Both the position numbers and the translations under genes were made by a program. A DNA stretch of 64,000 nt. Origin: Streptomyces yatensis (GTDB lineage: Bacteria > Actinomycetota > Actinomycetes > Streptomycetales > Streptomycetaceae). The DNA lies in assembly GCF_018069625.1 (NCBI RefSeq), contig NZ_CP072941.1:10168001-10232000 (forward strand). The letters run 5' to 3'. Positions 1 through 17,064 of this stretch are shown piece after piece. The notes beneath the pieces are model-generated. The model ran no database searches. It saw nothing but the letters and a program-made list of their open reading frames with translations, and was not told where the DNA came from. Position 1 is the stretch's first letter, and each line of letters opens with the position of its first letter.

Positions 1-2334
1 GGGTTCATGCTCTCCGACACCGCCCCGGCGCTGCTGCTCACCGACGCCGACACCGCCGCCACGCTGCCGCGGGACAGCGAGAACATCCCGCGCCTCCTCC
101 TGGACGACCCCGCGACCGGCGCACACCTCGCCCGCTTCGACACCACCGACCCCGGCGACGGCGACCGGCTCGCGCCGCTGCGGCTGGCCAACCCCGCCTA
201 TGTCATCTACACCTCGGGCTCGACCGGACGGCCCAAGGGCGTCGTCATCCAGCACACCTCGCTCACCGACTACCTGGTCTTCGCCGGGGGCGACTACGAC
301 GGGGTGCGCGGCACCGCGCTGCTGCACTCCTCGATCTCCTTCGACCTGTCGGTGACCGCCACCCATGTGCCGCTCACCGTGGGCGGCACCGTCCAGGTCG
401 TCAGCGACCTCCAGGACCCGGACCCCGGGACCGCCGAGGCGCTGCGCGCCCGCCCGTGCACCTTCCTCAAGGCCACGCCCAGCCATCTGCCGGTCCTCAG
501 CACACTGCCCGAGGAATTCGCGCCCACCGCCGAACTGCTCCTCGGCGGGGAGCTGCTGCCGGGCGAGCGGGTCGGCGCCTGGCGCGCGGACCACCCCGGC
601 ACCACCGTCCTCAACATGTACGGGCCCACCGAGACCACGGTCAACTGCAGCCAGTACCGCATCGCTCCGGACACACCGATCCCGCCGGGACCGCTGCCCA
701 TCGGCGGTCCGATGCCCAACACCCGGTTCCACGTGCTCGACGACCACATCGAGCTGGTGCCGCCGGGCGCGGCCGGAGAACTGTACGTGGCGGGCGACTG
801 CCTGGCCCGCGGCTATCTGGGCCGCCCCGATATGACGGCCGCCCGGTTCGTCCCCGACCCGTTCGGCGCCCCCGGCTCCCGGATGTACCGCACCGGGGAC
901 GTGGTGCGCTGGAACCCGGACGGCACGCTGTCCTTCCTGCGCCGGGTGGACGACCAGGTCAAGCTGCGCGGCTTCCGGATCGAGCTCGGCGAGGTCGAGG
1001 CCGTGGTCGACCGCCATCCCGCCGTCGCCAGGTCCGCGGTGATCGTGCGCGAGGACCGCCCCGGCGACCAGCGCCTGGTCGCCTATGTGGTGCCCGAGCC
1101 CGGCGCCGCGCTCCCGGCCCCGGCCGAACTGCGCCGCCACGCCGCCGCGGACCTCCCCGAGTACATGGTCCCGAACGCCTTCGTCCCGCTGGACGTACTG
1201 CCGCTGACCCCCAACCGCAAACTGGACCGCCGGGCCCTGCCCGCGCCCGAGTCCTCAGCGGTGTCCGGCGGCCGGGCGCCCCGCACCCGCCAGGAGCGGC
1301 TGCTGTGCGAGCTGTTCGCCGAGGTCCTCGGGATGGACCGGGTCTCCGTCGACGACGGCTTCTTCGACCTCGGCGGCCACTCCCTGCTCGCCACCCGGCT
1401 CATCGGCCGGGTGCGCGCCACCTTCGGGGTGGACATCGCCATCCGCACCCTCTTCGAGGCACCCACCGTGGCGGAGCTGACCGAGCGGCTCGGCACCGGG
1501 GAGGACGACGGCCAGGGCGCCTTTGACGTCCTGCTGCCGCTGCGCCGCAAGGGCGGCCGCCCGCCGCTGTTCTGCGTCCACCCGGCCAGTGGCTTCAGCT
1601 GGTCCTACGCCGGGCTGATGCGCCACCTCGGCCCCGACTACCCGATCTACGGCGTGCAGTCGCGTGGCATCGCCGAACCCGGTGAACTGCCCACCGGCGT
1701 CCAGGAGATCGCCGCCGACTACCTGAAGCAGGTGCGCACCGTCCAGCCCACCGGCCCCTATCTGCTGCTCGGCTGGTCCTTCGGCGGACTCGTGGCGCAC
1801 GCCATGGCCGAACAGCTCCAGCGCGCCGGTGAGCGGGTCGCCCTGCTGGCCATGCTCGACTCCTTCCCCCGGCTCCCCGCGAGCCACGGCGGCACCGCGC
1901 GGGCCGGGGAGGAGGACGCCGTCCTGTCCCAGCGGGAGTTCCTCGGCGGAATGCTCGACCTGGCCGGCTACGAACGGGCCGACTGGGACGGGGAGCCGCT
2001 GGAGTACGGCCGGGTCGCGGAGATCCTCCGCGGCCAGGGCGGCATCCTCGGCAGCCTGGAGGAGCGGCACGTGGCGGCCCTGTACGAGGTGTTCGAGAAC
2101 AATTCACGGCTCGCACGGGGTCATGTACCCGGTACCTACGTGGGTGACCTTCTCTTCTTCGAGGCGACGCTCGGCAAACCGGGGGACGCCCCCGGGCCCG
2201 AGGTGTGGACGCCCTTCCTGGAGGGCTCCATCGAACGCCACCCCGTCGAGTCCACCCACGACGACATGACCCAGCCGGAACCGCTCGCCGGGATCGGCCG
2301 GATCCTCGCCACCCGGCTCCGCGACTTCACCTGA
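1..2334 (+). CDS. Nonribosomal peptide synthetase, terminal A-T-TE module (5' end outside window)
   Basis: The reading frame is open from base 1, so the gene begins upstream and no condensation domain is visible. Adenylation motifs occur in order: YTSGSTGRPKG (A3, about residue 70), NMYGPTETT (A5, about 205), YRTGD (A7), VKLRGFRIELGE (A8) and NRKLDRRALP (A10). The carrier motif LGGHSLLATRL follows (Ser codon 1381-1383). A type I thioesterase ends the protein, with GWSFGG (Ser codon 1777) and a late STHDD histidine. Aligned by eye to GrsA, the specificity residues read D-L-T-K-L-G-M-V-N plus the invariant Lys, close to Asp codes of acidic lipopeptide synthetases. The Lys at position 278 is typical of a carboxylate side chain. 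I infer activation of Asp or 3-methyl-Asp as the last residue, then TE release or macrocyclisation. Product identity is inferred from the neighbours. Confidence 0.95.
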   Translation, partial: GFMLSDTAPALLLTDADTAATLPRDSENIPRLLLDDPATGAHLARFDTTDPGDGDRLAPLRLANPAYVIYTSGSTGRPKGVVIQHTSLTDYLVFAGGDYDGVRGTALLHSSISFDLSVTATHVPLTVGGTVQVVSDLQDPDPGTAEALRARPCTFLKATPSHLPVLSTLPEEFAPTAELLLGGELLPGERVGAWRADHPGTTVLNMYGPTETTVNCSQYRIAPDTPIPPGPLPIGGPMPNTRFHVLDDHIELVPPGAAGELYVAGDCLARGYLGRPDMTAARFVPDPFGAPGSRMYRTGDVVRWNPDGTLSFLRRVDDQVKLRGFRIELGEVEAVVDRHPAVARSAVIVREDRPGDQRLVAYVVPEPGAALPAPAELRRHAAADLPEYMVPNAFVPLDVLPLTPNRKLDRRALPAPESSAVSGGRAPRTRQERLLCELFAEVLGMDRVSVDDGFFDLGGHSLLATRLIGRVRATFGVDIAIRTLFEAPTVAELTERLGTGEDDGQGAFDVLLPLRRKGGRPPLFCVHPASGFSWSYAGLMRHLGPDYPIYGVQSRGIAEPGELPTGVQEIAADYLKQVRTVQPTGPYLLLGWSFGGLVAHAMAEQLQRAGERVALLAMLDSFPRLPASHGGTARAGEEDAVLSQREFLGGMLDLAGYERADWDGEPLEYGRVAEILRGQGGILGSLEERHVAALYEVFENNSRLARGHVPGTYVGDLLFFEATLGKPGDAPGPEVWTPFLEGSIERHPVESTHDDMTQPEPLAGIGRILATRLRDFT

Positions 2335-2390
2335 GCCCCCTCCACAGCCCCCTCCACGGACCTGTCCACGGAAGAGAGACGAGACGCGAG

Positions 2391-16538: not shown

Positions 16539-17064
16539 ACACCACAGCCGCCGGATCGACGCCCCGCCGGAGCGGGTCTGGCGCGAACTCATGGACCTGC
16601 GGGTCGGCGAACTCGCCATCACCCTCGGTCTGATGAGGGTGCGCGGCGGCCCCAAGACCTGGGTGAACGGTGTCGACACCGGCGCCCACGAAGGCATGGA
16701 CCTGCGGGTCCTGGACTCGATGGCACCCCGGGAGATGGCCGCCGACCCGCCGCATGAAGTGGTGCTCGGCGACATCGCCCGCTACACCGCGATGCGCCCC
16801 GCGCGCCCGGACCTCGAGCGCGGCGATCCCGAGGCGTTCGCACACTTCGACGAGGCGGGCTGGTCCAAGGTGGTGATGAACTTCCGCCTCACCCCCGAGG
16901 GCGAGGGCACCCTGCTGTCCACCGAGACCCGGGTGCTGAACACCGACGCCGCCACCCGCCGCGCCTTCGCCCTGTACTGGGGCTTCATGCGGGCGGGCAG
17001 CGGCATGATCCGTCATGACCTCCTGCGGGCCATCGCGAAGAAGGTGGCCACCACCGCGGGCTAG
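16492..17064 (+). CDS. SRPBCC-fold protein (START/polyketide-cyclase type)
   Basis: This 190-residue protein, with RRIDAPPERVWRELMDLRV near the N terminus and LSTETRVLNTDAATRRAFALYW near the C terminus, follows the pattern of small SRPBCC lipid- or polyketide-binding proteins. It starts inside the GlmE gene and is the last gene of the operon before a convergent terminator. Its function is unknown; binding or shaping the polyene/aryl intermediate is possible. Confidence 0.72.
   Translation: MHWTLERLLPTFDKREHHSRRIDAPPERVWRELMDLRVGELAITLGLMRVRGGPKTWVNGVDTGAHEGMDLRVLDSMAPREMAADPPHEVVLGDIARYTAMRPARPDLERGDPEAFAHFDEAGWSKVVMNFRLTPEGEGTLLSTETRVLNTDAATRRAFALYWGFMRAGSGMIRHDLLRAIAKKVATTAG

What the first reader, a model, noticed from the sequence alone, without database searches (positions are those of the whole stretch)
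1..17064. Coprisamide-like biosynthetic gene cluster end: highly reducing type II PKS plus Dap and methylaspartate supply
One operon-like array unites a terminal NRPS module, two KS/CLF-type pairs, ketoreductase, two dehydratases, DsbA-like isomerase, SbnA/B and glutamate mutase. Cinnamoyl-capped nonribosomal peptides use such PKS sets, and coprisamides are recalled to contain a heptatrienyl-cinnamoyl group, beta-methylaspartate and 2,3-diaminopropionate. The product may be this class or a new relative.
Basis: partly seen in the sequence, partly recalled or inferred. Interest (0 to 1): 0.8.

Follow-up and report, generated by a model that had tools for sequence, protein, structure and literature searches.

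The report
Coprisamide-type peptide antibiotic gene cluster
The window begins inside a bacterial gene cluster that builds a small ring-shaped peptide with an unusual benzene-containing lipid cap, very probably coprisamide or a near relative; the kind is already known, but how this type of cluster closes the benzene ring is still an open and testable question.

Summary
Bases 1-17064 are the 3' part of a cluster that starts near window coordinate -23,900. Upstream lie an ABC exporter and two NRPS proteins making six modules, with epimerases on modules 1-3 and a final thioesterase. Modules 2-6 (Ser-type, hydrophobic, Val-type, unassigned, Asp-type) fit the published ring of coprisamide C (D-Ser, D-Leu, Val, Dap, methyl-Asp). 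Every non-NRPS gene is 85-98% identical to its counterpart in a syntenic locus of Streptomyces rugosispiralis, a strain with a published cluster rated 95% similar to coprisamide C/D. The set recurs in 8 of 8 complete stretches read, from two families. KS1/CLF1 are nearest PDB 6kxd (recalled as the ishigamide pair), not actinorhodin's. So it is a new member of a known kind. Unexplained is benzene-ring closure. Three adjacent DsrE-like genes, found in this genome's two other isomerase-PKS loci, are missing here; their middle member was not found in 6 of 10 other carrier genomes. That they correspond to the known kitacinnamycin cyclase is my inference. A conserved helix-grip (SRPBCC) protein at the cluster's end is a candidate for that step.

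The parts
1..2334 (+). C-terminal part of NRPS2 (5001 aa, starts at -12671): end of module 5 and module 6 (C-A-T) with thioesterase; module 6 code DLTKLGMVNK, Asp type (methyl-Asp expected)
2391..2609 (+). MbtH-like protein
   Evidence: PF03621
2708..2965 (+). Acyl carrier protein 1
   Evidence: PF00550; 95.7% DNA identity to ACP2
3062..3550 (+). DUF3995 protein, role unknown, conserved in the set
   Evidence: PF13160
3550..4554 (+). SbnA-type 2,3-diaminopropionate biosynthesis enzyme
   Evidence: TIGR03945 over cut-off
4556..5563 (+). SbnB-type 2,3-diaminopropionate biosynthesis enzyme
   Evidence: TIGR03944 over cut-off
5658..6398 (+). Ketoreductase (SDR)
   Evidence: PF13561/PF00106
6395..6829 (+). 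FabA-like dehydratase 1
   Evidence: PF07977
6816..7298 (+). FabA-like dehydratase 2
   Evidence: PF07977
7376..7633 (+). Acyl carrier protein 2
   Evidence: PF00550
7640..8848 (+). Ketosynthase KS1
8845..10023 (+). Chain-length factor CLF1
9998..11134 (+). Ketosynthase KS2
11131..12129 (+). Chain-length-factor-like CLF2 (partial, weak ketosynthase match)
12131..13033 (+). Alpha/beta hydrolase
   Evidence: PF12697
13036..13989 (+). 4HBT_2 thioesterase-like (hotdog) protein
   Evidence: PF13279
13986..14717 (+). [not shown]
   Evidence: PF01323; nearest solved relatives 2-hydroxychromene-2-carboxylate isomerases at weak scores (best E 0.0011); A3
14734..15210 (+). Glutamate (methylaspartate) mutase small, B12-binding subunit
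   Evidence: PF02310
15207..16538 (+). Glutamate (methylaspartate) mutase large subunit
   Evidence: PF06368
16492..17064 (+). SRPBCC (helix-grip) protein, candidate ring-closing enzyme, function unproven; called start lies inside MutE and may be too early

Best explanation
A coprisamide-type cluster for a cinnamoyl-capped cyclic nonribosomal peptide, about 41 kb, window about -23,900 to 17,064. Inferred pathway: KS1/CLF1 with the ketoreductase, two dehydratases and twin ACPs build a polyene; the DsbA-like isomerase turns one double bond to Z; KS2/CLF2 extends the chain; ring closure and aromatisation give a 2-alkenylcinnamoyl-ACP. The first condensation domain of NRPS1 takes this acyl group. 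Six modules add D-X, D-Ser, a D-hydrophobic residue (Leu expected), Val, Dap (expected) and 3-methyl-Asp (expected), and the thioesterase releases a ring. SbnA/SbnB supply Dap and MutS/MutE supply 3-methylaspartate from glutamate; the ABC pair exports. Shown here: gene content, module order, specificity codes and synteny with a coprisamide-like cluster genome. Inferred: each enzymatic step and the product.
For: Gene content. Module order and epimerase pattern. Codes of modules 2-6 in the order of coprisamide C's ring. S. rugosispiralis is published with a coprisamide C/D cluster at 95%, and its syntenic locus has all non-NRPS genes at 85-98% identity. Same gene kinds in 8 of 8 complete stretches. 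KS/CLF type.
Against: The primary coprisamide C/D paper and MIBiG BGC0002378 were not seen (timed out). Module 1 has an epimerase and a code I cannot assign, while the extra Val of coprisamide C is written as L. I cannot assign module 5's code to Dap from any call. No dedicated ring-closing or oxidising enzyme was recognised. MutS/MutE lie below NCBIfam equivalog cut-offs.
Confidence: 0.92

Rival explanations
1. A new relative inside the same type: the same hexapeptide plan, but a first residue and/or acyl cap that differ from coprisamides A-D. This overlaps with the best explanation rather than excluding it.
For: Module 1 code DVFSVAIVYK is unassigned and is followed by an epimerase, against an L-Val in the table for coprisamide C. 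Cap length and starter cannot be predicted from these genes.
Against: S. rugosispiralis, with the syntenic locus, is rated 95% similar to coprisamide C/D.
Confidence: 0.35
2. The cap is a linear polyene, not a cinnamoyl group: the cluster lacks a ring-closing enzyme and stops at the polyene, as recalled for ishigamide.
For: KS1/CLF1 are nearest 6kxd. No DsrE-like triple and no recognised oxidase in the cluster.
Against: A DsbA-like isomerase and a second KS/CLF pair are present; an isomerase is stated to mark cinnamoyl clusters (PMC6510318 passage). The coprisamide match predicts a ring, and epoxinnamide has a ring without the known cyclases.
Confidence: 0.06
3. An aromatic or spore-pigment type II PKS that lies by chance beside an NRPS.
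For: KS/CLF architecture alone.
Against: PKS and NRPS stay together in 8 of 8 complete stretches.
Confidence: 0.01

Closest known systems
Coprisamide C/D cluster (MIBiG BGC0002378; Shin et al. 2021, cited in passages, not read)
   Same: Parts implied by the structure (alkenylcinnamoyl cap, Dap, methyl-Asp, D-Ser, D-Leu, Val) match the genes and modules 2-6; S. rugosispiralis with the syntenic locus is rated 95%
   Different: Cluster not compared directly; residue 1 configuration and the exact cap unknown
Epoxinnamide cluster (epc)
   Same: Two KS/CLF pairs, KR, two dehydratases, isomerase, ACP and NRPS; no known cyclase homologue reported (PMC9321520 passages)
   Different: Different peptide (with Hpg supply genes and a P450); no Dap or methyl-Asp supply mentioned in the passages seen
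Kitacinnamycin (kcn), youssoufene (ysf) and globisporamic acid (gla) clusters
   Same: Polyene type II PKS with isomerase (PMC6510318; PMC9381841, passages)
   Different: kcn makes a nonapeptide with a Kcn17-18-19 ring closure, youssoufene uses another protein; ysf and gla have three KS/CLF pairs
6kxd KS/CLF (recalled as ishigamide Iga11/Iga12)
   Same: Best solved match of KS1 and CLF1
   Different: Ishigamide is recalled as a linear polyene

Membership tests
Cinnamoyl-containing nonribosomal peptide (CCNP) clusters | Intact polyene-type II PKS (KS, KR, DH, ACP, isomerase) clustered with NRPS genes, as used in PMC6510318 | tested here: met
Cinnamoyl-containing nonribosomal peptide (CCNP) clusters | KS in the polyene clade, not the aromatic one | tested here: met
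   no named sky/kcn/ysf references were in the tree
Cinnamoyl-containing nonribosomal peptide (CCNP) clusters | Known benzene-ring cyclase (Kcn17-18-19 or the youssoufene protein) | tested here: inconclusive
   DsrE-like triple, inferred to be the Kcn type, absent; reference sequences not on hand
Coprisamide cluster | Dap supply (SbnA/SbnB) | tested here: met
Coprisamide cluster | Methyl-Asp supply (glutamate mutase) | tested here: met
   below NCBIfam equivalog cut-offs
Coprisamide cluster | NRPS order D-Ser, D-Leu, Val, Dap, methyl-Asp | tested here: inconclusive
   Module count, D/L pattern, Ser, Val and Asp types fit; Leu and Dap codes not assignable from calls
Coprisamide cluster | First residue Val, written as L in one table | tested here: inconclusive
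   Module 1 code unassigned and epimerase present
Coprisamide cluster | Gene-by-gene match to BGC0002378 | not testable with these tools
   Only indirect, through S. rugosispiralis
Aromatic / spore-pigment type II PKS | KS/CLF nearest actinorhodin-type pairs | tested here: not met

The most novel reading that the evidence does not exclude
Coprisamide-type clusters close and aromatise the benzene ring with a further, undescribed enzyme rather than the kitacinnamycin-type protein triple, and the SRPBCC helix-grip protein at 16492-17064 is that cyclase/aromatase. This would link the helix-grip fold of classic aromatic type II PKS cyclases to a polyene-derived ring.
Probability: 0.15. Interest if true: 0.65.

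Novelty: new member of a known kind. Interest (0 to 1): 0.3.

Why it matters
It places a complete coprisamide-type pathway on one finished Streptomyces chromosome and shows the same gene set and module plan in Streptomyces, Saccharothrix, Prauserella and Actinokineospora. It also sharpens a question left open in print for epoxinnamide: what closes the benzene ring in cinnamoyl clusters without the known cyclases. The set is compact, shows no recognised flavin or P450 oxidase, and carries one unassigned helix-grip gene, so single-gene removals could answer it.

Tried and rejected
Aromatic or spore-pigment PKS: rejected. SRPBCC as a partner of the mutase only: weakened, because in 392 Streptomyces genomes 15 of 40 SRPBCC matches lie within 20 kb of an isomerase match, 11 of them outside the four coprisamide-type genomes. 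SRPBCC as a strict replacement of the DsrE-like triple: not supported, because of 16 isomerase places with an SRPBCC within 40 kb, 4 also have the triple within 40 kb, and most isomerase loci lack a detectable SRPBCC nearby (12 of 80 have it within the held flanks; 16 of 98 within 40 kb). For one search I dropped 13 weak isomerase rows (E 1.2e-6 or worse). Trans supply of the triple: possible in this strain, which has two copies elsewhere, but its middle member was not found in 6 of 10 other carrier genomes. Five-module NRPS in Streptomyces sp. NWU339: a repeat collapse in a draft assembly cannot be excluded. The automatic code script misread M1 and M3 in several rows by anchoring on the wrong motif; those two codes are read by hand. 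MutE in viral contigs: nothing. Promoter/terminator scan: nothing useful.

Limits: quick tree with SH-aLRT only and midpoint root; it holds no named skyllamycin, kitacinnamycin or spore-pigment reference, and two rows of one locus (L092) are duplicates. The SRPBCC model is good in its core (mean pLDDT 84.4), but the TM-scores of the listed Foldseek hits are low (0.27 to 0.57), so only the fold class is claimed. The whole-genome test for the triple used one protein and could miss remote homologues, mostly outside Streptomyces. Absence of the triple within 10 kb of other isomerase loci says little, since it can lie 30-40 kb away. Upstream genes other than the NRPSs were not scanned with Pfam; the ABC pair was named by eye and by its conservation. 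Solihabitans (L093) could not be searched as a genome.

Full report
What is there. The window is G000:C1:10168001-10232000 of a 10,360,357-base single-contig chromosome; its named close relatives are Streptomyces. From NRPS1 to the SRPBCC gene the gaps run from -47 to 98 bases. The GH67 gene downstream is outside the conserved set.

Upstream. The cluster continues to about -23,900: an ABC ATPase and an ABC-2 permease (named by eye), NRPS1 (3069 aa) and NRPS2 (5001 aa, ending at 2334). Core motifs give C-A-T-E-C-A-T-E and C-A-T-E-C-A-T-C-A-T-C-A-T-TE. Specificity codes, read by hand from the sequence printed with positions recalled from the GrsA scheme: M1 DVFSVAIVYK (unassigned), M2 DVWHLSLVDK (Ser), M3 DALLVGAVAK (hydrophobic), M4 DAYWWGGTFK (Val), M5 DIWEMTADDK (unassigned), M6 DLTKLGMVNK (Asp type). 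The amino-acid assignments are recalled and come from no call.

Match to coprisamide. A review table writes coprisamide C as a cinnamoyl-capped ring of D-Ser, D-Leu, Val, Dap and methyl-Asp with one further Val (PMC13192320, passage). Modules 2-6 fit in order and in D/L pattern. Module 1 fits less well: the further Val is written as L, while module 1 has an epimerase. Other passages confirm Dap, methyl-Asp and the alkenylcinnamoyl unit (PMC4778507; PMC11119530). The primary paper was not read (timed out). The bridge is S. rugosispiralis RCU-064: a table lists its cluster 1 as coprisamide C/D, 95% (PMC10525797, table passage), and a syntenic locus in that genome (L080, genome G393, stretch L220-L222) carries every non-NRPS gene of the set at 85-98% identity. 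The row gives no coordinates, so that it is the same locus is inferred. BGC0002378 is named for coprisamide C in PMC12837462 (passage).

Spread. 10 of 80 also carry MutS and MutE, and all 10 carry the SRPBCC gene; 2 of the other 70 carry a weaker SRPBCC match. Eight complete stretches were read: G165 and G142 and G392, G393, G396, G397, G398, G399. All eight hold the 20 kinds of non-NRPS gene tested; a second ACP is present in the five Streptomyces stretches and not in Saccharothrix, Prauserella or Actinokineospora. In those three the Dap genes lie on the other side of the NRPS genes. G150 is cut by its contig end. Counting this genome, the M6 code is identical in 9 of 9, M5 in 8 of 9, M2 is Ser type in 8 of 8 and M4 identical in 7 of 8 of the modules read. 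In SCUT-3, NRPS2 is split over several frames. NWU339 lacks a Ser module.

PKS type. KS1 and CLF1 score best against 6kxd chains A and B (398 and 179 bits; actinorhodin 1tqy 181 and 63 bits). KS2 is also nearest 6kxd_A (133 bits); CLF2 matches solved structures only weakly (27.5 bits at best). In a 75-row tree KS1, CLF1, KS2 and CLF2 fall in groups of 21, 17, 17 and 14 rows made of proteins from isomerase loci (SH-aLRT 99, 99, 100, 99), apart from the other discrete KS proteins of this genome that were put in. That 6kxd is the ishigamide pair is recalled. Two KS/CLF pairs, one initiating and one extending, are also proposed for epoxinnamide, and successive pairs for youssoufene (PMC9321520 and PMC9381841, passages).

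Precursor supply. SbnA and SbnB are over the NCBIfam cut-offs; in 11 of 11 carrier genome handles searched the SbnA family is found over its cut-off. The mutase subunits align to Clostridium glutamate mutase. The large subunit keeps the YTR, RHG, EGGxxSY and IVKTP stretches visible in the printed alignment. The small subunit has DxHxxN where 1cb7 has DxHxxG; the N is shared by 8 of 8 relatives whose match covers the motif, and two further matches start at HTWN.

Open point: ring closure. A passage states that kitacinnamycin's ring is closed by Kcn17-18-19 and youssoufene's by another protein, and that epoxinnamide has neither (PMC9321520). In this genome, two other isomerase-PKS loci (3.11-3.15 Mb, with NRPS; 6.35-6.37 Mb, no NRPS called) each carry three adjacent small proteins, some with weak, sub-threshold DsrE resemblance. 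In 392 Streptomyces genomes the middle one has 39 matches in 32 genomes, 31 of them within 40 kb of an isomerase match. I infer, without their sequences, that these are the Kcn17-18-19 type. Profiles of all three found none in the 164 kb around the window, nor in the nine carrier stretches tested (G150, G165, G142 and the six). The middle protein was found elsewhere in the genome in 4 of 10 other carrier genomes and not in 6 (handles G142 and G394 share a contig of the same length and were counted as one strain). If the inference holds, trans supply is not the general answer.

Candidate. The SRPBCC protein is predicted as a helix-grip fold, with Foldseek neighbours such as CalU16, PYR1, CoxG and, at rank 50 (E 0.0028), the WhiE ORFVI aromatase/cyclase. 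It lies near isomerase genes far more often than chance: 15 of 40 matches within 20 kb, about 0.2 expected, this genome included. Against it: most isomerase loci lack a detectable one, and 4 places have both it and the triple. Rival answers are closure followed by flavin oxidation without a dedicated enzyme (recalled from o-dialkylbenzene work; paper searches 56, 60 and 79 timed out), or the hotdog or hydrolase protein.

Side result. The two ACP genes are being kept alike: 95.7% identical in DNA here, 99.6% within NWU339 and 98.5% within SCUT-3, while NWU339 copies are 91.5-94.6% identical to those of the other species compared and SCUT-3 copies 88-89% to this genome's ACP2; flanks of the pair here are unrelated. 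This looks like gene conversion.

Verdict. The residual interest is the unassigned ring-closing step.

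Noticed in passing
window 2708-2965 and 7376-7633: Two ACP genes 4.7 kb apart stay nearly identical within each genome (95.7% here, 99.6% in NWU339, 98.5% in SCUT-3) while differing more between species, as if homogenised by gene conversion.
   Followed up: partly
L067-L069 (G000:C1:3112001-3167000) and L070-L071 (G000:C1:6350001-6390000): The same genome holds two further isomerase-type polyene PKS loci, one with its own NRPS genes, both with a DsrE-like protein triple.
   Followed up: partly
L051 (G142, Streptomyces sp. NWU339): NRPS1 has one module instead of two and looks like a mosaic of modules 1 and 2; real deletion or assembly collapse is undecided.
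   Followed up: partly
L218-L219 (G397, Streptomyces sp. SCUT-3): NRPS2 is split over several reading frames, so it is either broken or misassembled.
   Followed up: no
L258 (G055:C3:5365454) and L260 (G372:C12:100705): SRPBCC genes 94% and 87% identical to the cluster's one lie in genomes with no coprisamide-type isomerase match beside them.
   Followed up: no
window 14734-15210: The mutase small subunit and its relatives have DxHxxN in place of the DxHxxG cobalamin motif seen in 1cb7.
   Followed up: partly
L150: A MAG labelled Acidobacteria carries an isomerase-type polyene PKS locus with an SRPBCC gene.
   Followed up: no
window 17119-19911 (-): A GH67 glycosidase gene directly downstream, also next to the cluster in the two closest relatives only.
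   Followed up: no
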